Virus record (IMG/VR): IMGVR_UViG_3300027793_000339
Span: 1-20,462 of that record
Reading direction: 5' to 3' (one strand)
Origin: a virus
Length of the DNA stretch: 20,462 nt
Shown here: piece after piece, positions 4,321 through 13,984 of the stretch
How the letters are laid out: each line of letters starts with the position of its first letter
How positions within the stretch are numbered: the first letter of the stretch is position 1
Notes under the pieces: generated by a model
The model's input: only the letters and a program-made list of their open reading frames with translations
Told to the model about the DNA's origin: nothing
Database searches by the model: none
Position numbers and translations under genes: made by a program

Positions 4321-4724
4321 TTTACAAAACGGCGAAAGTTGAACTTTGGCAGTCCGGGAGTTGTAAGAGGAAGCCAAACAACACCTTTCCTTGTGTGAAT
4401 TGTAACGACACCAAGATTGCCGCTATTTTCAAGTACCGTAGAGATCCCGAGCTTTGGGTGTCCGCCGGCTCCCCTGTTCCGCGTCATTGCTACACAGCCC
4501 TGCTCAACAACATCAGTTGGACAGGTGTGATGATTCCAAGCCGTCTCCAGTGAACCCCAGAGTCCAGCAGCGGCCATGTCCATCCAACGAGGATCAATCT
4601 CTGGCCTGTAGATTCCGGCTTCATCGAGAAGGGTGAAACAGAGGAGCAAGCAATCTGCGGCTTTTCCTTCTTTCGGGTCAGCCCAGAACTCATGCTTCAG
4701 TCCAAGATACTGATGAAGGCTCAT
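4317..4724 (-). CDS. NlpC/P60-like tail assembly cysteine peptidase (probable)
   Basis: This is a 135-residue soluble protein. An Asp-Cys pair (D24-C25, in GKAADCLLLCFTLLDEAGI) is followed 85 residues later by H110 (in LGVVTIHTRKGVVW). That matches the order and rough spacing of the catalytic Cys and His of NlpC/P60 peptidases, which in phage tail tips (lambda K type) cut cell-wall peptide links or help assemble the tip. The gene starts with ATG at 4724, overlapping the previous stop by four bases (ATGA), and ends beside the start of the J-like gene, the usual place for this family. The protein is short and the motif around the Cys is not the most typical form, so a catalytically changed or merely structural relative is possible. 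Confidence 0.55.
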   Translation of the reverse strand: MSLHQYLGLKHEFWADPKEGKAADCLLLCFTLLDEAGIYRPEIDPRWMDMAAAGLWGSLETAWNHHTCPTDVVEQGCVAMTRNRGAGGHPKLGISTVLENSGNLGVVTIHTRKGVVWLPLTTPGLPKFNFRRFVK

Positions 4725-5209
4725 ACGGAAATGGTTCCAGATGTTGGCAGCGCTCCCACAAGCGACTGTGAAAGCGGTCTACCACCAACTGTAGCGTTGA
4801 CAGTATCAAGTGGACTGGCAAGCTGAAGAACAGATTGACCCGGCCTGCCCATCTCAACCGCACCCTCAACCCTGCAGGACCACAGCATCTTGGTCAGCTG
4901 CGTAAGTTCTTGATCGGTTTCAGTGTCAATCTCTACTGAAGTTACCTCAACCAGCCACTTACTGGAGTCCGCTTGCCAGAAGATGTTTTGGACAAGGGTG
5001 TTGGCTGGACATACGATCGCACCCCTGCTGCGTTCTCCGCCCTGCTTGCCGCCACCACCAGAAACGCCAAGAGGGGCAAAGTCGTAATCAACTCCACCGT
5101 AAGTGCGCGTTTCGTTAATGAAATAGTTTTGGTACGCATAGGGGAGGTAGCCCCCTCCCCCGCGTTCCTTGAAGCGGATGTAGCTGACAATTGCGAATTC
5201 CCCTTTCAC
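4721..5209 (-). CDS. Minor tail protein of unknown family, downstream of tape measure
   Basis: This 162-residue protein starts at GTG (5209-5207), with a GGGG stretch about ten bases upstream. It has no signal peptide or membrane segment. The N-terminal third is rich in Tyr and Gly. The C-terminal half is well ordered, with a conserved-looking core around WLVEVTSVEIDTETDQELTQ. By position, between the tape measure and the NlpC/P60-like protein, it fills the place of lambda gpM/gpL-type tail-tip proteins; I see no motif that proves this. Before the tnpB element arrived, the gene probably began four bases after the tape measure stop. That old gene end still lies directly upstream (5214-5246). 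Confidence 0.7.
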   Translation of the reverse strand: MKGEFAIVSYIRFKERGGGGYLPYAYQNYFINETRTYGGVDYDFAPLGVSGGGGKQGGERSRGAIVCPANTLVQNIFWQADSSKWLVEVTSVEIDTETDQELTQLTKMLWSCRVEGAVEMGRPGQSVLQLASPLDTVNATVGGRPLSQSLVGALPTSGTISV

Positions 5210-5213
5210 TGAA

Positions 5214-5243
5214 TCAGAGCCCCAGGCGCTTACGTGTCTTCAT
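5214..5243 (-). CDS. Orphan 9-codon ORF: displaced 3' end of the tape measure gene
   Basis: An ATG at 5243-5241 opens a frame of nine codons (MKTRKRLGL) ending in TGA at 5216-5214. With the preceding AGC codon it repeats the last ten residues of the tape measure protein. It is best read as the original gene end, cut off by the tnpB element. A GGAAG motif supplied by the right end of the element lies seven bases before the ATG, and the stop is four bases before the GTG of the next gene. It could therefore be translated as a leader peptide that keeps coupling to the downstream tail gene. Translation is inference. Confidence 0.4.
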   Translation of the reverse strand: MKTRKRLGL

Positions 5244-5246
5244 GCT
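5214..5246 (-). repeat. Displaced original copy of the tape measure 3' end
   Basis: These 33 bases encode SMKTRKRLGL-stop (TGA). They share their first 11 bases (AGCATGAAGAC, 5236-5246) exactly with 6606-6616, and 23 of 33 positions overall. All differences are synonymous, counting the stop. The copy lies directly against the right end of the element and four bases before the next tail gene, so it is probably the ancestral gene end. Confidence 0.85.
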
Positions 5247-5372
5247 TTGACTTCCAGCCACCATACAGATGGTAGCCTCCTTCTACGCTGTGCATGGGAA
5301 TGCCTCAGCGATCGGGTGGGTTGACGCTTCACAGCCTGCCGCCACCGAAAGGGTGGACTGATGCACGGCTCC
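5227..5372 (-). ncRNA. Putative TnpB guide RNA (omega/reRNA): scaffold plus guide
   Basis: TnpB proteins use an RNA made from the 3' end of tnpB and the right end of the element, with the guide taken from the flanking DNA. Here the right end folds well. A hairpin at 5256-5277 pairs GCTACCAT with ATGGTGGC (one G-U) around a CTGT loop. A second hairpin (CCACC/GGTGG) lies near 5341-5355. GTGCAT (5361-5366) can pair with ATGCAC (5290-5295) over a longer range. The scaffold would end at TCAA (5247-5250), and the guide would start at 5246 with AGCATGAAGACACGT, matching the displaced tape measure end. The 5' boundary is a guess, and the RNA is inferred from family behaviour. Confidence 0.45.
5247..5250 (-). 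other. Probable right-end cleavage site (TCAA) of the tnpB element
   Basis: On the minus strand the bases are TCAA. From memory, TCAA is the right cleavage site of the IS608 type in the IS200/IS605 family. The duplicated tape measure gene end begins at the very next base (5246), so two independent signs place the element boundary here. The assignment is inferred because no transposase is present to test it. Confidence 0.4.
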
Positions 5373-6491
5373 ACGCCCGTTTTGACTCTCCGCCAGTCCG
5401 GCGGCGAGGATGTTCAAAGCAGCGTTGATGTCGCGGTCGTGAACCGTTCCGCAACTCGGGCACTGCCACTCCCGAATCGACAGCTCTTTCTTGCCGTCGT
5501 GATGGCCGCAAGCTGAGCAGACCTGACTGGTAGGGAGCCATCGGTTGATGACAACCACCTGCCTGCCATATTGCTCAGCCTTGGACTCCAGCAGAGCCCT
5601 GAACTGCCGCCAACCCGCATCGGCAATCGAGCGGGCCAGCTTCTTGTTCTTCAGCATCCCCGAAACGTTCAGGTCTTCCAGCACCACCGTTTGGTTTTCA
5701 CGGATGATGCGGGTCGAGAGCTGATGCAGGAAGTCGAGGCGCCGATCAGCAGCCTTGGCGTGCAGCTTGGCTACCCTGCGTCTAGCGAAAGCCAGACGGT
5801 TAGAGCCCTTTTCCTTGTGCTTCAGGTTGCGCTGCAGCCGCCGCAGCCGCTTAAGCGCCGAGCGCAGAAACCTCGGCGGAGCAATCTTTTTGCCATCTGA
5901 GGTAACGGCGAGGGATGTCAAGCCCAAGTCTATGCCAATCACTTTGCCGTTTTTCGGCATTTGACTTGGCTCGACTTCTACAACAAAGCTTGCGAAATAA
6001 CGTCCGCTGGAATCACGAATAATTGTGACACTGGTTGGCGATGACGGCAGTGAGCGACTCCAAATAATTGGCACTGAACCAATTTTTGCAAGAATCAAAC
6101 GATTATTTTTTACGCGAAATGCATTGGATGTAAAACGAGCTGACTGGGTGCCGCACTTTTTCTTGAAGCGCGGCGGGCCAACCCCACTGCCCCTGCGCTT
6201 TCCTTTTAGGCTATTCCACCAATTACGATAGGCTCTGTCAAGGTCGCGCACAGACTGCTGAAGTATCGTATTACTTGGTTCGGCAAGCCACTTTCTTTCA
6301 GGAGTCTGCTTCGCTTGAGTAATGCAAAGCTTGGCTAAAATTGGATAGGTAACTTTTTGACCAGCACTGTATAGCTCGCGGCTTTTGGCTAGAGCGTCAT
6401 TCCATACAACGCGAGCGCAGCCAAAGGCCTTGCCGATCGCACCTATTTGGTGCGGGTGTGGATACAGGCGAAACCGGTAGCGTCGCTTCAT
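5283..6491 (-). CDS. tnpB: TnpB RNA-guided nuclease (IS1341-type, no TnpA partner)
   Basis: This 402-residue protein has the normal TnpB length and all key parts: an OrfB-type N-terminal helix-turn-helix region (residues 1-40), the split RuvC nuclease core with D188 ([13 protein letters not shown]), E272 ([12 protein letters not shown]) and D354 ([13 protein letters not shown]), and a zinc ribbon C325-x2-C328 / C344-x2-C347. Nothing is missing, so it should be active. TnpB nucleases cut DNA next to a short adjacent motif, guided by an RNA from the element's right end. No TnpA transposase lies in the window, so the element cannot move alone by the usual peel-and-paste route. The start is ATG at 6491-6489, directly behind an extended -10 promoter. 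The gene sits between the tape measure and a minor tail gene in the same direction, where it breaks a tightly packed tail operon. Confidence 0.95.
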
Positions 6492-6497
6492 CAGTCA

Positions 6498-6503
6498 ATT
6501 ATA
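6498..6503 (-). promoter_or_regulatory. Extended -10 promoter of tnpB
   Basis: On the minus strand TGGTATAAT is a perfect extended -10 (TGn plus TATAAT). There is no good -35, which an extended -10 can do without. The transcript should start within a base or two of the ATG at 6491, giving a leaderless or nearly leaderless tnpB mRNA. Confidence 0.6.
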
Positions 6504-6583
6504 CCACGCGGGGCCACTCCTACCCACCCCCGGCTTCCCGTCGCCTTGGCGTATGGTCGCTTAATTGCCCGACAAGTATATAA

Positions 6584-6616
6584 CTACAGGCCGAGTCGTT
6601 TTCTGGTCTTCATGCT
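6584..6616 (-). repeat. Recoded copy of the tape measure 3' end, now in use
   Basis: These 33 bases form the present end of the tape measure gene and encode SMKTRKRLGL-stop (TAG). After the shared AGCATGAAGAC (6606-6616), every codon differs from the copy at 5214-5246 without changing an amino acid. Against the predicted guide it mismatches at positions 12, 13, 15, 18 and 21 counted from the element boundary. Confidence 0.85.
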
Positions 6617-9600
6617 ATCGGCAAGTTCACGAATCGTCTGGTTCCGGGCCACCTTAGCAGTACGGGCATTAGATGCCTCAAGCTGCTCGGGAGTGACGAA
6701 ATCGTACTCGTTGACGCGAGTGGTTTCGTACTTGATCGGAGGCAGTTCTTTCGGGCTGCTGGTGACACGCTCCAGTCGGTCGATCTCCCTGGTCGTTTCA
6801 CTCCGCTGATACGGAACGGCCCGACCATAGTTGCCGGTGTAGATGGTGTCACTAGATTCACCATCACCGCTCTCCATGCTGCTCGCGGCGCGACGGGTAT
6901 AGCGGCCGATCGAAGGGGCACTGCCGCCCTTGTCGTCAAGGCCGGGGACGTACAGCTCGTCGTTGGGAATGATCGTGCCTGGGCGGTCGGGAACCCACAG
7001 CTCAGGGCCGTTCTCGCCGATGATCGCCGGGTCGTAGGGATCAGGGCGACCGCCCGAGGCATAGCCAGGCAGGCCGAGGTTGCCGAGGTTGAGCATTTCG
7101 CCGGTAAAGCCGGGGAGCGACGACTTCGGCTTGCTGCCAAACAGACCTGACAGTCCACCGCCAGCGCCAAACATTCCAGTGATAGAGCTGATGGATCCGA
7201 AGATTGAAGCTGCACCCATCAGGGTGTTGTAAGCCCCGCCCTTGCGGATCATCTGAGCGCCGCCAACGCCCATCGCGATGCTGCTGATCGCTTGCAGGCC
7301 GATGCCAACTGTTTTCTGGAACTTGGTGACAGAATCTGACATCTGAGTGCCGAGATCCTGAACGCTATCTGTCGCTTGCGCGGCTGCCTGGCCAAGCTGA
7401 CCCAGCGATTCGGCCGTCTGATTTCCAGCTGCAGTAGCGGGACCATAGGCAGCGCCAACAGCCTCGCGCATTGCATCGTAAGCCTCAAGCATTCTCCTAG
7501 CATTTTCCTCAGCATTGAACTGAGGAGCTGGCTGAACCTGGGACACAACAGAGCCAATTTCGGAAAGAAGCTTGCTGGTGATCGCAGGGTTTAGGCCGGG
7601 CTCTCTGCCTGGGCCGTGGAAGAAGTTCTGCCCCTCGGCTCGCAGGAAGTCGCCCTGCATCATATTGCCGTACTGGCTAACGCCTTTGAAATACAAGCGG
7701 CCATTGATGTCCTTGATCGACTGCTCAAGAAGTGCGGGATCAAGAAGCTCGGCCTTGACCTTGTTGAACAGGTCGGCGCCGTAACGATTTGGATTGACGA
7801 CTTGGGCGCGACTCAGGCCAAAATTTGGTGCATACTGGCCGGCTTGGGTTACGACATCCACCAGATTCGATGGATACTGACCGGAGCGTGAGCGGCTGAG
7901 GATGTTCGCGAAAACATCAGTTCTGCCCAGCGGATCGGATCCACCATATTCGCCAATTGCAGTATTGACTGCAGCCGCAATTTCTTCATCCGTAAGACGC
8001 AGCGCCTCCTTGATGCTTCTGCCGGTCATCGGCAGATCAGGCCCGCCAACGCCCGTGAACTGTCCAGTTGCTCCACTGGACTGAGCGTCCCGATACCACT
8101 GACCGCTCTTGGGGGGCTCCGTTGCCGGCGACCTGCCGCCTGGACCTGGGACAATCCCGTTCGCGGGAGCCGTGGCCGGGGCCGGAGTGGCGCCGCGAGC
8201 CGCCGCAGCCGCAGTCTCAGCCTTTTTGACAAGTTCAATGGCAGCCTGAAGAATCTTGTCGGTATTGTCCTTGACAGCAGTAATTGGCTGAAGCAGGGGG
8301 TTCTGCTCAGGTTTGATGCCTAAGACATCGGAGAGATTCTTGAACAGCTGATCCTGCAGGGGGCGCAGCGTAAACTCAAGGAGGACATCAAGAGTCCGAT
8401 CTGCAACGCCTTCAGCGAAACGCTGAACAGATTCCAGCAGGTTCCCGCCTTTCAGCAGTTCTTTATTGAGCTGGATAAACGAGTCGGTCCAGCCACTTGC
8501 AATATCCCTAAGTCCATTAAGAACCTTGAGCTTGGCATTCAAGTTGTCAAGCGCTTTTGCGTTTCTGAGGATTTCCTCCTCCTGTCTTGGGTTGATGCCA
8601 AGCCCGCCACGGCTGTTGATGATTTGCAGCCACTTATCATATTCGCTGACAGGGAGCAGGAGCGCAGAAATCTCACCCCTCGCCTGAGTAATGGAGTTGC
8701 TGAGCTGGTCGTTTGACTGGGTGTAAAACTCAATTGTTGGCCGCAGCTTTTCAAACTCGACAGTAACTTTTTCCGCAGTGGCAATTAAGCCGAGCAGTTC
8801 GGGTGTCAGCTTGAAATCTGGCCGCCTTGCAAGAGAGCTGACAAGGCTTGTGTAAGAGCCTTGAATGACGCCGATGGCAATTGAGAAATCGTCTGCGACA
8901 AGGCCAAGTGCCTTCCTGGATCTAGTAAGAGAGTCGTCAAGCTCTTTGAATGGACCGGTGGCAAGATCGCTTATGCGACCAATAAATTCATTGAAGTTGC
9001 CAGCCTGACCAGAATTGACAAGTGAAGTTTCAAGGTCGAGCAGGGTCTTCTGAAGCTGATCCCCGCGTGCCACGGCCTGCGTTACGCCAGCAGTAGAAAC
9101 ACTCCGAGTGGAGACAGACGGAATCTCCCTGAGCTTTGGAGGAGCCTTTGTTGTCTCAATCGCTTTCAGGTTTTCGCCCGCGAGCTTCAGATTTTCTGTG
9201 ATGTTGTCGAAGATTGTTTGATTTGCCGTGAGTACGTCTTGATAGACCTGCTTGCCAGGATTCTCCTTCGCATTGACCTTTGCGCTTTCAAGGAAGCTGC
9301 TCTGCCTTGCCTGCATGACAAGGAGTTCGTTCTTGATAACCTCTGCCTTAAGCGAGGCAATTTTCTTTTCGGCTTCAAATGTATTCAGGGCCGCATCTTC
9401 GTTTCTGCGTGCAACGCTTCTGTTGATCTCCTGAATTTTTTCGGCGGTGCTGATATTCAGGTCCGAAACCCTCTTGGCAACCTCGGCCTTGTACTTTTCA
9501 AGCTCAACCTGTTGGTTGCTAATCGCAATCTCAAACTGCTTACGGCGTTGCTCGATCTGATCCTGGGCCGAAAGCTGAGCGCCAAGGTAGGTGGTTACAG

Positions 9601-12600
9601 CGTCCGCAAGGCTTTGCGCAAGCTCGTCGCCAGCCAGCTCATTGCGAACCTCAAGCGCAGCATTCTTAAACTGCTGCTCCCTGATCTGACCCTGCTTGAC
9701 AAGGATCTCAAGCTCTTTCTGGGCGTTTTCTTGACGAAGCTGGGAGATCCTGTCTTCAACGCCACGGCGAATATCCTCGATCTGCTTTTCGTAGTCACGA
9801 CGCAGCTCAAAGGACTGACGATCAAGATCTTCCTGCTCGCGCTTGATGGCGTTGGCTTGTTGCTTGAAGCCCTTCAGGATGTCCGCTCCTTCGTTCCGCT
9901 TATTGAATACTTCGAGATCGCGTTGAGCTGTGTCGCGGCGGGTTTCTGCGTCCCTGATCGCCTTGTCGCGTTGCTCCTGTGGCTTGAGCTGTGGCGCAGG
10001 AGTGGATCTTACAAGTCCAGCGGTGATTTCAGCCAAATCTTTAGTCGGAATCCCAAGAATTGAACCAGCTCCACCGCCTCCAAGCGGGCGGCCAATCAAC
10101 CTCTCAAGAAGTCCAGATCCCCTTGGTGCGCCTGCTTTTTCAGCGGCAGCCTGCAACTGCCTGTTTGCAGCCGCTCTAGCTTCTGGTGTGGCTGCAGCAA
10201 AGGCATTCTCAAATCTTTTTTCCGTCCCGCTTCTCTCCAGTCCTGATGCAATAGCATTCAAGATGTCAGTAAGCGGCCCAGCAACAAGAAGCTGGATCTG
10301 TACGCCAAGGTCGGCCATTGCACGCTTCAGGCGATCACCAGCATCAGCGGCTTCACGAAGCTTCGTAGCTCCATCGACCCCGAGCTTGTTATTCAGTTCA
10401 CCCTGGATAATCGAGTAGGCAGCGGTCTTATTCCCAGCCTCAATCAGATTGCCAATCAGCTTTTCCTGGCCACGGCTTGCAAGCAGGCCGGAATCCTTGA
10501 TCTGCTCAAAGTTGCCGACCAGATCACGCAGCATGTTGCCGGTGTCCTGGGTCGCCTGCATCAGCATGTCCACCTGGGAGCCGATCGCCGTGCCAGCAAG
10601 CGACAGGCCGAAGCCCAGCGTGCCGCCGGCCAGGCCACCGAAGAAGCCGCCCAGACCGCCACCAGCAGCGGCTCCGGCGCCCTGACCGAACAGGAGGGGG
10701 AAGGCGCCACCGATCAGGCCTTCCCCGACCGCCTGGCCGCCTCTCTGGCCGAACCTGCGGGTCAGGAAGTCAGCCCCGGTATCCCGGCGAGCAATCTGGT
10801 CGTCAACCTTGTTCAGAACTTTGGTCAGCTGATCAAAGCTCGCGTCCGTCATCTTCACGCCTTCGCGTGTTTCAGACAGCGCCTGAGACAGAAGCTGCAG
10901 CTGCTTGATGCTGGCGCCTGACATATCAGCCAGATCCTTCAGGCCAAGAAGCTGATCAGCATTGCCGCGAGCAGCATTTACGCGGCCCTCAAAGTCGCCA
11001 GGATCCGGTCCGGCAGGAGGGGCTGGAGGATTCGGCCCACGACCGCCGCCGCCAGCAGACCGAACAGCGGAAGAGGTGAAATTGGCAGCAGATTGAACGC
11101 TGAGCGCAAAGTCGCGAATCGGCTTTGTAGCGGAATTCAGTGCTTGCTGCAATTTTTCAAGCGGGGATCCAATAGCGGCACCGGCTTCGCTACCAAGGGT
11201 CTGCGTCTTACCAAAAGCAAAGATTGACGAAAGCGGTGATCCAATGCCGCGCCCCTGAATCTGATTGGCGGAAAACAGGGGATTAGAAGGTGGAGCGCTC
11301 TGAAGAGTTGGTAGCTTACCGCGAATTCTTTGGTCGCGACTCATCAGAATACCAGGGTTCAGAATTGATGACTCGCCCGCTTGTCCGGCAACCGGAGACA
11401 TGGGTGCCGTTACGAACCTGGCAGAGCTGAACTTGTTGGCACTCTTGACGAAGGCGTCATCAATCTGCTTTTCAAGAAGCCCCGGAAGGTTCCTGAAAAT
11501 TCGCTCAAGCTTCATTTCCGGGAATACGTCCTGGAACGTACCCCTTGCGCTCGACTCCCTCAGTATTTCGGTTGGGAAGTTCTGGAGCCCAACCGCATCA
11601 ATTCGCCTTCTGTATTTAGCCGAATCAATTGTCAGGTCAGCAATGGATTGCGAAAGTGTTCCATAGTTAGCTCCAAGGCTCGGACGCTTCACCGCAAAAT
11701 CAAACTGACCTGCGATTCCAGTCTGCGGATTTCTAGTAGGAAGGTTTAGGGAGGCAGTCGCTATGCCCTCTCTTGCCGTTTTAACGGCTTTCCCAACTGC
11801 ATTCGCGCCAGCACCAAAGGCCTTGCTGAAGGCCGCTTCAATAGCAGAAGTACCCTGCTCAAGCCTGCTAGTAGTGGCATTGATGATGTCACTGATTAGC
11901 ATAAGAATGAACTTGGGAGGGCTGTTCCTGCCAAAGACCTTATTGATCGCTTTTGTTGCAGCAGACGCAAACTTGGTTGCCGCCGCAGCAGCGCTGGATG
12001 AACCGCCGGCAAGCTTGTCGGCAAAAGTGCTTACAACGCTCGCGCCAGTTTCAGCGGCGCCAGAGACTGCGCCCTTGAGGCCGCCAGCACCAGTTCCTGT
12101 AGCTTTCCCGCCAACAGAAGCGTTGAACGCACCGATGATGTTGCTCAGGGCTTGCTCGCCACTGCGACCGCCACGGAAGACCTTGGCGGCAGTGTCTGCA
12201 CGTCCGAGATCACCAAGAATCGAGGTCAGGGTTCCGGTATCGCGCTGCTGCCCACGGCCAAGCCTTTTTGCAAGCTGCTCGGATGCTTTTGACTCAGCCT
12301 GCGCATTGGCCGCTCTTTGCTTCTCTAGCGCAAGCAGTTGCCTTGTTCCGTTTAGCTCTTCATCAAGAATATCCAGGCTCTTCGCGGAAATCTCAAACGT
12401 ATCAGCCTTTGCGGCATTGAGTGTATTTTGGAGCTTGACAAGGGTGTCACCAATCTCAACGCCTTTTGCCTGCGCTCCGGCAAGTTTCTCCTGCAAAAGG
12501 AGGCCAGAGGCGAGGATGTTAGCGAGTCGCTTTGGCGCATCAATTGGTGAGACGTCAGTGGTTCGGATATTTGAAGGCCTGATTTGTCCAGCCTGGCCGG

Positions 12601-13984
12601 CTCCAGCCTTGGTGGACACTCCACTGGAAAGCTCCTCCACCTGAGCTAATGCACTTCTCCAGTTTATTCCCTTTGCTGCAAGTTTCTGCGCCTCAGTTAC
12701 TGGCGTTGGCGTTCCACGTCTATTCAGGCGCTCAAGCGACATTCGCTGGCGGTCAATTTCAGCTGTCTGACGCTTCGAGGCCGTTAGATCCCTTTCGGCA
12801 AGCGAGGAAGTTGCCTTGTCAAGCTTTTGGCGAAGCTCAAGTTTTTGGTTTTGACTGAGAAATGCTTGGTCAACACGAGTCTCAAGAGCCGCAATTCGAT
12901 CAAGCTGCAGTTCAATCTTATCATAGTATCCCTGCTTCTTGATGATTGATTTCGGATCATCAAGCCTGGAGGCAGGGCCAAGCTGCGGCTGAATCTTCAT
13001 ACTTTGGCCACGCAGGCCAAATCCGCTCATTTCCTCGCGAACAGATGCAATCCGCTCCTCAAGAGCCCGGTACTCATTGGAGATAACAGGAACAAGAGAG
13101 CGCAGTCTTTCTAGGTAGCCAAGGTATGAGTCCATTGCGGCCTCGCTTCTTGTCACCGTGTCACCCATTGCAAGCGCGGAAGCAATGAGCTTGCGGGAGC
13201 CGGCAAGATTGGCTTCTGATGTACCTTGACCAAAATTTTGACGCTGAGCCTGAGGAGATAAACCAAAGGCGATAGCCCGAAAGCGTTGCTGTTCGGCTTC
13301 TGCGAGCTTCTTGTTCGCCCCCTCTACGGCAACACTGAATCTATTGAAATCGGCAGACGCAATTTTAACGTTATTTGCAACCAGCGAAAGAGCGGATGCC
13401 TGCTCTTTGAGCTGACTTATGCTTGCGTCAAGGCCTACGTCTTTGCCAAGCCCGCCAGTTACGAGTTTCTTGCGGAGATCTCCAATGCGGAGATAGGCAT
13501 CAGCAAGGCCCTGAAGCGCGTTTACGCTTGCCTGGTTTTTCATGGCAAGGCCAAGGGCTCTGTTAAGCCCGATCGCCCCGGTCTGGGCCTCCCTCTGCCT
13601 CTGTGTTAGCTGGGCTGTTTTGCTGTTGAGTTCATCAATAGCGCTGGCCGCGTCAAGAATATCTTGCTGTAACTTTTTATAGGTTTTTGTTTCTGGATTT
13701 TTCAGTCTTGACAGTCTTTGCTGCGCCTTTTCGATTTTATCAAAGTTTTTTTGAATTTCAGCTCCAGCCCCAGCAATACCCTTTCCAGCATCGTCCGAAA
13801 TACGGTTAAGCGCAGTCATGCTTGACTGCAGCTTTTCCACATCACGCACAGCTCTTGACGCGGATACGTCCAGCGGGGAGCTATTTAGCCTATTAACAAT
13901 GTCGTCAAGCTTGCTAACTCTTTCAATCAGCCTGTCAACAGCTGAGCGGCCAGTTACCAGAAGGTCAATTGAAGCGCCAGCCAT
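6584..13984 (-). CDS. Tape measure protein with SleB-like hydrolase domain
   Basis: This 2466-residue protein is the tail-length ruler. It starts with ATG at 13984. Coiled-coil-prone, Gln/Lys/Glu-rich sequence covers residues about 1-140, 340-440 and 1330-1585. A Gly/Ala-rich hydrophobic stretch (about 1087-1140, GEGLIGGAFPLLFGQGAGAA) is typical of the part that inserts into the host membrane. Residues about 1985-2125 look like a SleB-type cell-wall hydrolase: a helix followed by GEYGG with candidate catalytic E2012, then NILSRSRSGQYP, and ending in NFFHGPG. A classic tape-measure C-terminal motif lies near 2320-2340 (GENGPELWVPDRPGTIIPN). It follows the chaperone and a gp10-like gene, the normal place. 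Its last ten codons are the recoded copy next to the tnpB element. At about 0.15 nm per residue, the tail would be near 370 nm. Confidence 0.92.
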   Translation of the reverse strand: MAGASIDLLVTGRSAVDRLIERVSKLDDIVNRLNSSPLDVSASRAVRDVEKLQSSMTALNRISDDAGKGIAGAGAEIQKNFDKIEKAQQRLSRLKNPETKTYKKLQQDILDAASAIDELNSKTAQLTQRQREAQTGAIGLNRALGLAMKNQASVNALQGLADAYLRIGDLRKKLVTGGLGKDVGLDASISQLKEQASALSLVANNVKIASADFNRFSVAVEGANKKLAEAEQQRFRAIAFGLSPQAQRQNFGQGTSEANLAGSRKLIASALAMGDTVTRSEAAMDSYLGYLERLRSLVPVISNEYRALEERIASVREEMSGFGLRGQSMKIQPQLGPASRLDDPKSIIKKQGYYDKIELQLDRIAALETRVDQAFLSQNQKLELRQKLDKATSSLAERDLTASKRQTAEIDRQRMSLERLNRRGTPTPVTEAQKLAAKGINWRSALAQVEELSSGVSTKAGAGQAGQIRPSNIRTTDVSPIDAPKRLANILASGLLLQEKLAGAQAKGVEIGDTLVKLQNTLNAAKADTFEISAKSLDILDEELNGTRQLLALEKQRAANAQAESKASEQLAKRLGRGQQRDTGTLTSILGDLGRADTAAKVFRGGRSGEQALSNIIGAFNASVGGKATGTGAGGLKGAVSGAAETGASVVSTFADKLAGGSSSAAAAATKFASAATKAINKVFGRNSPPKFILMLISDIINATTSRLEQGTSAIEAAFSKAFGAGANAVGKAVKTAREGIATASLNLPTRNPQTGIAGQFDFAVKRPSLGANYGTLSQSIADLTIDSAKYRRRIDAVGLQNFPTEILRESSARGTFQDVFPEMKLERIFRNLPGLLEKQIDDAFVKSANKFSSARFVTAPMSPVAGQAGESSILNPGILMSRDQRIRGKLPTLQSAPPSNPLFSANQIQGRGIGSPLSSIFAFGKTQTLGSEAGAAIGSPLEKLQQALNSATKPIRDFALSVQSAANFTSSAVRSAGGGGRGPNPPAPPAGPDPGDFEGRVNAARGNADQLLGLKDLADMSGASIKQLQLLSQALSETREGVKMTDASFDQLTKVLNKVDDQIARRDTGADFLTRRFGQRGGQAVGEGLIGGAFPLLFGQGAGAAAGGGLGGFFGGLAGGTLGFGLSLAGTAIGSQVDMLMQATQDTGNMLRDLVGNFEQIKDSGLLASRGQEKLIGNLIEAGNKTAAYSIIQGELNNKLGVDGATKLREAADAGDRLKRAMADLGVQIQLLVAGPLTDILNAIASGLERSGTEKRFENAFAAATPEARAAANRQLQAAAEKAGAPRGSGLLERLIGRPLGGGGAGSILGIPTKDLAEITAGLVRSTPAPQLKPQEQRDKAIRDAETRRDTAQRDLEVFNKRNEGADILKGFKQQANAIKREQEDLDRQSFELRRDYEKQIEDIRRGVEDRISQLRQENAQKELEILVKQGQIREQQFKNAALEVRNELAGDELAQSLADAVTTYLGAQLSAQDQIEQRRKQFEIAISNQQVELEKYKAEVAKRVSDLNISTAEKIQEINRSVARRNEDAALNTFEAEKKIASLKAEVIKNELLVMQARQSSFLESAKVNAKENPGKQVYQDVLTANQTIFDNITENLKLAGENLKAIETTKAPPKLREIPSVSTRSVSTAGVTQAVARGDQLQKTLLDLETSLVNSGQAGNFNEFIGRISDLATGPFKELDDSLTRSRKALGLVADDFSIAIGVIQGSYTSLVSSLARRPDFKLTPELLGLIATAEKVTVEFEKLRPTIEFYTQSNDQLSNSITQARGEISALLLPVSEYDKWLQIINSRGGLGINPRQEEEILRNAKALDNLNAKLKVLNGLRDIASGWTDSFIQLNKELLKGGNLLESVQRFAEGVADRTLDVLLEFTLRPLQDQLFKNLSDVLGIKPEQNPLLQPITAVKDNTDKILQAAIELVKKAETAAAAARGATPAPATAPANGIVPGPGGRSPATEPPKSGQWYRDAQSSGATGQFTGVGGPDLPMTGRSIKEALRLTDEEIAAAVNTAIGEYGGSDPLGRTDVFANILSRSRSGQYPSNLVDVVTQAGQYAPNFGLSRAQVVNPNRYGADLFNKVKAELLDPALLEQSIKDINGRLYFKGVSQYGNMMQGDFLRAEGQNFFHGPGREPGLNPAITSKLLSEIGSVVSQVQPAPQFNAEENARRMLEAYDAMREAVGAAYGPATAAGNQTAESLGQLGQAAAQATDSVQDLGTQMSDSVTKFQKTVGIGLQAISSIAMGVGGAQMIRKGGAYNTLMGAASIFGSISSITGMFGAGGGLSGLFGSKPKSSLPGFTGEMLNLGNLGLPGYASGGRPDPYDPAIIGENGPELWVPDRPGTIIPNDELYVPGLDDKGGSAPSIGRYTRRAASSMESGDGESSDTIYTGNYGRAVPYQRSETTREIDRLERVTSSPKELPPIKYETTRVNEYDFVTPEQLEASNARTAKVARNQTIRELADSMKTRKRLGL

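What the first reader, a model, noticed from the sequence alone, without database searches (positions are those of the whole stretch)
5214..6616. tnpB element carries a fully recoded copy of the host gene end it displaced
The last ten codons and stop of the tape measure gene appear on both sides of the tnpB element, and both encode SMKTRKRLGL-stop. The first three codons are identical (AGC, ATG, AAG). After that every codon differs: Thr is ACC in the live copy and ACA in the displaced copy; Arg AGA and CGT; Lys AAA and AAG; Arg CGA and CGC; Leu CTC and CTG; Gly GGC and GGG; Leu CTG and CTC; stop TAG and TGA. Chance or a plain insertion cannot easily give synonymous change at every codon. The element seems to bring its own replacement gene end, so the tape measure protein is unharmed. 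I know of genes rebuilt after integration into tRNA genes and of homing endonucleases beside recoded sites, but not of a TnpB element that does this in a phage tail gene. Alternative: recombination between two diverged phages at the shared 11 bases.
Basis: partly seen in the sequence, partly recalled or inferred. Interest (0 to 1): 0.93.

Follow-up and report, generated by a model that had tools for sequence, protein, structure and literature searches.

The report
Phage TnpB element with rescue gene end
A cyanophage carries a small RNA-guided DNA cutter (TnpB) at the end of its tail-length gene, with a rewritten copy of that gene's last codons; this keeps the gene intact and makes it mismatch the cutter's own guide, so it looks like a natural version of the 'home-and-rescue' gene drives that people engineer, and two other virus or plasmid records show the same layout.

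Summary
Both sides of the tnpB element encode SMKTRKRLGL-stop; after 11 shared bases all codons, stop included, differ synonymously. Six tnpB-less relatives settle the polarity: their tape measure gene reads straight into the displaced-type end (2-5 differences in 33 bases; 10-13 from the live end) and then the next gene. So the live, recoded end is the newcomer.

Empty relatives match it with as few as one mismatch in 20. In the phage itself, the recoded end mismatches at positions 12, 13, 15 and 18, and the perfect copy has no TAM. tnpB is intact, under purifying selection, and its omegaRNA hairpin is kept by six two-sided compensatory changes.

In a survey of 153 TnpB loci, two unrelated ones repeat the layout (L352, L308), also starting at the first guide base.

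Best reading: a TnpB homing element carrying a cleavage-immune replacement gene end, i.e. a natural home-and-rescue drive. Fungal mitochondrial homing endonucleases with 'foreign C-termini' are the precedent; RNA guidance, and phages, are new. Cleavage and homing are untested.

The parts
6584..13984 (-). tape measure gene, 2466 aa, live copy ending in the recoded tail
   Evidence: ORF; relatives align to its C-terminus at 66-87% identity; no Pfam hit, so 'tape measure' rests on length, position and homologues
6617..6621 (-). CCGAT, TAM-like pentamer just upstream of the target (CTGAT or CCGAT in empty relatives; TTGAT in the parent IS605 family)
6584..6616 (-). recoded live gene end, SMKTRKRLGL-stop; bases 6605..6584 carry synonymous changes in every codon
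6492..6583 (-). leader between the recoded stop and tnpB; holds TATAAT at 6503..6498; canonical IS605 left end is absent
   Evidence: no match in phages, 201 Cyanobiaceae-type genomes, or other viral contigs
5283..6491 (-). tnpB, 402 aa, intact RNA-guided nuclease
   Evidence: Pfam OrfB_IS605, Cas12f1-like_TNB, HTH_OrfB; near full-length match to ISDra2 TnpB structures 8bf8/8exa/8h1j; catalytic D188, E272, D354 and zinc cysteines invariant; dN 0.12, dS 0.96 against L016
5256..5277 (-). omegaRNA terminal hairpin, GGCTACCAT-CTGT-ATGGTGGCT
   Evidence: 9 of 9 pairs kept, 6 with changes on both sides against L014/L016
5247..5255 (-). conserved right-end terminus GGAAGTCAA, last bases of the element
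   Evidence: alignment of 13 right ends; sequence diverges completely after TCAA
5227..5246 (-). guide segment AGCATGAAGACACGTAAGCG (16-20 nt), identical to the start of the displaced gene end
   Evidence: position from right-end alignment; guide rule from PMC8612924; mismatch table
5214..5246 (-). displaced ancestral gene end, SMKTRKRLGL-stop, now serving as guide and probably still as ribosome-binding region for the next gene
   Evidence: matches empty relatives
4721..5209 (-). next gene (162 aa), start GTG 4 bases after the displaced stop
   Evidence: ORF; 84-99% identical homologues

Best explanation
This is a TnpB homing element fixed at the 3' end of a conserved phage gene. Its omegaRNA guide is the native end of that gene, displaced downstream of the element. 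Related phages without the element carry that sequence next to a TAM-like CYGAT. TnpB would cut them there (inferred), and repair from the element-bearing phage would copy tnpB together with the replacement gene end (inferred). The recoded end does two jobs: it restores the full tape measure protein (shown by sequence) and it mismatches the guide, so the carrier's own gene is not a target (mismatches shown, immunity inferred). It also leaves only 11 bases of uninterrupted homology between the two ends, which limits loss of the element by recombination (inferred). The original TnpA-dependent left end is gone, so homing would be the element's only mobility. In short, a natural home-and-rescue drive.
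For: Empty relatives carry the displaced version in place, joined to the next gene. The displaced copy begins at guide base 1, defined independently by 13 aligned right ends. Guide mismatches in 20: one (position 15) in three empty relatives, two in another, but 12, 13, 15, 18 in the live recoded copy; the perfect displaced copy is preceded by AGTCAA, not a TAM. Native ends hardly vary synonymously (0-3 of 7 codons) between phages whose gene bodies differ at 15-56% of comparable codons (about 50% in most pairs), yet the recoded end differs at 7 of 7 plus the stop; 0 of 325 equal-length windows of the gene body against the nearest relative do so. Flanks are only 9-11% diverged on both sides, so the change is focal. 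tnpB intact and constrained, omegaRNA hairpin covarying. The layout recurs in L352 and L308 with different TnpBs and genes, again starting at guide base 1; shuffled-pair maximum 28 against 49 (this phage), 49 (L308) and 92 (L352). TnpB gene-drive behaviour is published for plasmids (PMC11870625).
Against: No cleavage, homing or transcript data. The TAM at empty sites is CTGAT or CCGAT, not the family's TTGAT, so activity may be weak. Three or four mismatches at 12-18 reduce but may not abolish cleavage. Only one phage lineage carries this copy, so transfer between phages is not seen. The recoded bases beyond the guide (positions 21-33) are not explained by guide escape alone. No empty site was found for L352 or L308, and L308's tnpB is frameshifted. 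Folding of 144 nt of the 3' region was no better than shuffles.
Confidence: 0.7

Rival explanations
1. Foreign end by recombination: the live end is the native tape measure end of a diverged phage, joined at the shared 11 bases when or after the element entered. It works as rescue, but the recoding is just divergence, not selected for escape from TnpB. (This concerns the origin of the bases and can be true together with the homing mechanism.)
For: Random codon draws would change all eight codons about 9% of the time (own estimate); in L308 the two ends differ in protein sequence as well, and in L352 partly, as expected of foreign ends; fungal cases were read as horizontal transfer.
Against: A degenerate scan of 2.9 million viral contigs for T-[RS]-K-R-L-G-L-stop found the recoded end only in this phage. 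Native ends are almost frozen at the base level in the family and carry a GGGG run 12-15 bases before the next start, which the recoded end lacks.
Confidence: 0.4
2. Plain IS605 insertion near a gene end; the similar upstream end is a chance or pre-existing duplication of no consequence.
For: Nearly all TnpB loci surveyed lack any tail copy.
Against: Empty relatives have one end only; chance gives at most 4 matching residues in 2000 trials; canonical left end and tnpA are absent; recurrence in L352 and L308.
Confidence: 0.04
3. Domesticated TnpB: the nuclease is kept as a phage-versus-phage exclusion weapon against relatives lacking the element, and copying of the element is incidental.
For: Same guide and immunity logic; left end and tnpA lost; nuclease constrained. 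Nuclease-linked marker exclusion is known in T4 (PMC2988022).
Against: Not separable from homing with sequence alone; location at the cut site is what homing predicts.
Confidence: 0.2
4. Assembly artefact joining two phage strains.
For: Metagenomic contigs; a shared 11-mer could mislead an assembler.
Against: Two separate contigs carry the same two junctions at 100% identity and another covers the right one; the right junction falls exactly at a biological boundary; no strain with the recoded end but without tnpB exists in the collection.
Confidence: 0.03

Closest known systems
Fungal mitochondrial mobile endonuclease elements with foreign C-termini (Allomyces atp6; Rhizopus atp9; Mortierella cox2; Glomus atp6, atp9, cox2, nad3; PMC3630166)
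   Same: Nuclease gene at a gene's 3' end; inserted C-terminus fused to the gene; native C-terminus displaced downstream and near-identical to relatives; differences often synonymous.
   Different: Those use LAGLIDADG or GIY-YIG proteins in mitochondria. Here the nuclease is RNA-guided, the displaced end is itself the guide, and the host is a phage.
Engineered home-and-rescue (HomeR) and cleave-and-rescue drives (PMC7968924)
   Same: Guide against the 3' coding end of a needed gene; re-coded 3' end (22 or 27 aa in HomeR) upstream of the drive cassette; wild-type end displaced downstream.
   Different: Natural, 10-codon rescue, TnpB instead of Cas9, guide taken from the displaced end itself. 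Drive not demonstrated.
IS200/IS605 TnpB (ISDra2; PMC8612924) and TnpB gene drive in plasmids (PMC11870625)
   Same: Near full-length TnpB homology, right-end omegaRNA, guide from the downstream flank, TTGAT-type family.
   Different: Canonical elements have a left end, and autonomous ones tnpA, and carry no host coding sequence; here both are missing and the left side is a gene end.
T4 free-standing homing endonucleases (mobE in nrdA of Aeh1, mobA at gene 39/60; PMC2988022)
   Same: Phage homing nucleases in or beside essential genes, spreading by repair in mixed infection.
   Different: When they enter a coding region they split the gene; none is described there as bringing a replacement end. 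Cut sites are distant and protein-recognised.
TnpB at the tape measure/minor tail junction of mycobacteriophages QuickMath and Pollywog
   Same: TnpB at the 3' end of a tape measure gene, protein unharmed.
   Different: Antisense, clean insertion after TTTAC; the right end TCAA supplies the stop codon (TGA); no recoded tail.

Membership tests
TnpB RNA-guided nuclease | OrfB/TNB domains with RuvC triad and zinc finger | tested here: met
TnpB RNA-guided nuclease | omegaRNA ending at the right end with conserved hairpin and terminus, guide following | tested here: met
TnpB RNA-guided nuclease | TAM next to the target in the empty site | tested here: inconclusive
   CTGAT or CCGAT instead of the family's TTGAT
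TnpB RNA-guided nuclease | guide-dependent cleavage | not testable with these tools
   needs biochemistry
IS200/IS605 transposon | TnpA (Y1) transposase, or at least a left end TnpA could use | tested here: not met
   no Y1_Tnp in the 86-kb contig; left-end motif absent with up to 3 mismatches
Mobile endonuclease with replacement C-terminus (fungal mORF type) | gene fused to an inserted C-terminus, native C-terminus displaced and matching relatives | tested here: met
Mobile endonuclease with replacement C-terminus (fungal mORF type) | LAGLIDADG or GIY-YIG endonuclease | tested here: not met
   TnpB only; so it works like one but is not a member
Home-and-rescue drive | rescue copy immune to the guide, target intact in empty alleles | tested here: inconclusive
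   mismatch pattern fits; cleavage immunity not measured
Home-and-rescue drive | copying into empty alleles | not testable with these tools
   needs co-infection or plasmid assay; only one carrier lineage known

The most novel reading that the evidence does not exclude
Phages and phage-like plasmids harbour a recurrent class of TnpB homing elements that carry a cleavage-immune replacement gene end: natural home-and-rescue drives in which selection against self-targeting drove full synonymous recoding of the rescue copy, and in which the displaced native end is kept because it is the guide.
Probability: 0.4. Interest if true: 0.93.

Novelty: new variant of a known kind. Interest (0 to 1): 0.85.

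Why it matters
It shows how an RNA-guided selfish element could settle inside a conserved gene without harming it, and gives a natural counterpart of engineered rescue drives. It makes TnpB homing in phages directly testable, since guide, target, immune copy and empty relatives are all known to the base. It also offers a simple sequence signature (a gene tail repeated exactly at guide base 1) with which to find more such elements; two were found in a modest survey.

Tried and rejected
Chance duplication: rejected. Pre-existing tandem ends in relatives: rejected. Long tract imported from a diverged phage: rejected, flanks are 89% and 91% identical to L004. Native donor of the recoded end: none found. 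Known RNA family: no Rfam hit. First flank test on about 70 TnpB loci and on 18 annotated phage TnpB loci found no second case; the stop-anchored test on 153 loci did. L350, L355 and L297 also scored but are duplicated omegaRNA scaffolds, not gene ends. L326 looks like tandem paralogues. Relatives of the ParM-ParR operon have ParR tails such as KKKLPQFG and RRRLPPGFGG, so the displaced L308 end (KKKLPFGAKKG) is recognisably a ParR end. Coordinates out of frame, a wrong handle, an overlong fold and a bad search term gave errors only.

Full report
The window is a 20.5-kb viral contig (IMG/VR) of a tailed phage, probably infecting picocyanobacteria, since the nearest tnpB relatives sit in Cyanobiaceae-type genomes. 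On the minus strand a 2466-aa tape measure gene is followed by tnpB and then by a conserved 162-aa gene.

Observation. The last ten codons and stop of the tape measure gene occur at 6616..6584 and again at 5246..5214. Eleven bases are shared; then every codon, including the stop, differs while the peptide SMKTRKRLGL is unchanged. Resampling of the flanks never gave more than four matching residues before a shared stop, against ten observed.

Polarity. Eleven other contigs encode the 162-aa neighbour. L002, L003 and L010 are the same phage at 100% identity. Six lack tnpB at this site and cover the junction (L004/L023, L005/L024, L006, L007/L026, L008/L027, L009/L025). All read the tape measure gene straight into ACN-CGY-AAG-CGY-CTGGGGCTCTGA and then the next gene. 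They differ from the displaced copy by 2-5 bases of 33 and from the live copy by 10-13.

The recoding is focal. Against the nearest empty relative the tape measure 3' region is 89% identical and the downstream region 91%. Native ends are unusually static: between empty relatives, 0-3 of the last 7 codons differ, although in most pairs about half of all comparable codons in the gene body do. The recoded end differs at 7 of 7 and at the stop; none of 325 windows of seven codons in the body does so against L023. A likely reason for the stasis is that the native end carries the ribosome-binding region of the next gene (GGGG 12-15 bases before GTG; AGGAGG in the distant relative L028). The displaced copy keeps that role; the recoded copy lacks the motif (inference from sequence).

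The displaced end is the guide. Thirteen related elements share a right end that finishes in a hairpin and GGAAGTCAA (one with GGGAGTCAA), after which sequences are unrelated. In the window the base after GGAAGTCAA is the first base of the displaced copy. TnpB guides are the ~16 nt following the right end (PMC8612924). The guide is therefore AGCATGAAGACACGTAAG(CG), the native gene end. Empty relatives match it in 20 positions with one mismatch (L023, L006, L027), two (L024), three (L025) or four (L026), behind GCCGAT or GCTGAT. The live recoded copy keeps GCCGAT but mismatches at 12, 13, 15 and 18; the displaced copy matches perfectly but follows AGTCAA. Neither copy in the carrier is a full target. 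In an archaeal TnpB, single mismatches strongly reduced editing at weak TAMs but were tolerated at strong ones (PMC11043419), so immunity here is likely, not proven. The family inserts after TTGAT (L014, L016, L033); CTGAT or CCGAT at this site is a deviation that must be tested.

The nuclease looks functional. It has the TnpB domains, aligns over most of its length with ISDra2 TnpB structures, keeps catalytic and zinc residues, and shows dN 0.12 against dS 0.96 with L016. The terminal hairpin has 9 of 9 pairs, six with both bases changed relative to its relatives. By contrast many copies of this tnpB family in cyanobacterial genomes are broken. The canonical left end is absent, and no Y1 transposase is found in the 86-kb contig, so it is not an intact IS605 transposon.

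Recurrence. Among 153 distinct TnpB loci a stop-anchored test gave a shuffled-pair maximum of 28. The phage of the window scored 49. Two unrelated loci also stood out as gene ends. In L352 (a phage tail region, next to a sheath gene) the live gene ends SNVFQGTESPAVQISIRERSKITLGGNMILIP-stop, tnpB follows, and then SNVFQGTETPSVQISIRERTKITLGGNMVLIP-stop without a gene body. The copy begins at AAACGAT, directly after the terminal omegaRNA hairpin and TATAC; the fold beats shuffles at z -3.8. In L308 (a ParM-ParR operon in a Firmicutes-type record) the ParR-like gene end and terminator are duplicated, score 49, and the displaced end starts right after AACGG, which 17 aligned right ends, most of them well conserved there, mark as the boundary. 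Those ends differ in protein sequence as well, so they look like foreign or old replacement ends. In both, the live copy mismatches the guide (L352 at 8, 9, 10, 14, 20; L308 at 11 of 20). L308's tnpB reads in two overlapping frames, so it may be decaying.

Mechanism. The evidence fits a homing element that targets a conserved gene end and carries a replacement end. Shown: empty sites, element boundary at guide base 1, intact protein, mismatch pattern, conserved nuclease and omegaRNA, recurrence. Inferred: cleavage of empty relatives, copying by repair, immunity of the recoded end, suppression of deletion between the two ends. Not settled: whether the recoding arose by selection in place or came from a diverged phage. 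A scan for donors found none.

Precedent. Fungal mitochondrial endonuclease elements carry C-termini that replace and displace the native end, with synonymous differences in several cases (PMC3630166). HomeR drives use the same layout by design, with 22 or 27 recoded residues (PMC7968924). TnpB-driven spread has been shown in plasmids (PMC11870625). T4 homing endonucleases that enter coding regions split the gene instead (PMC2988022). Literature searches here found no report of a TnpB element with a replacement gene end, within an open-licence library only. I therefore call it a new variant of a known kind, with high interest because the RNA guide makes every step testable to the base.

Noticed in passing
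L350 (flanks of tnpB, 1-700 and 1760-2000) and L355: tnpB flanked on both sides by near-identical omegaRNA-like scaffolds, each followed by CRISPR-like repeats (GTGCGCCCCACAGGCGCGGGGAACGGC in L350); looks like a TnpB with small arrays, possibly an intermediate towards Cas12.
   Followed up: no
L195 (QuickMath) and L209 (Pollywog), around 2700; empty site L210 at 720: Mycobacteriophage TnpB inserted antisense at the end of the tape measure gene after TTTAC; the element's terminal TCAA, read on the other strand, supplies the gene's TGA stop, so the protein is unchanged. A second, independent case of TnpB at a tape measure 3' end.
   Followed up: partly
L297, about 1830-2000: An extra omegaRNA-like copy with its own AACGG terminus lies upstream of tnpB, with a different putative guide.
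   Followed up: no
L028/L029 at 6660; native ends of all empty relatives: Tape measure gene ends appear to double as the ribosome-binding region of the next gene, which may be why the base sequence is conserved and a good homing target.
   Followed up: partly
G001, G068, G136, G191, G202 (Cyanobiaceae-type genomes): Relatives of this tnpB are numerous but largely fragmented or with internal stops in host genomes, whereas the phage copies are intact.
   Followed up: no
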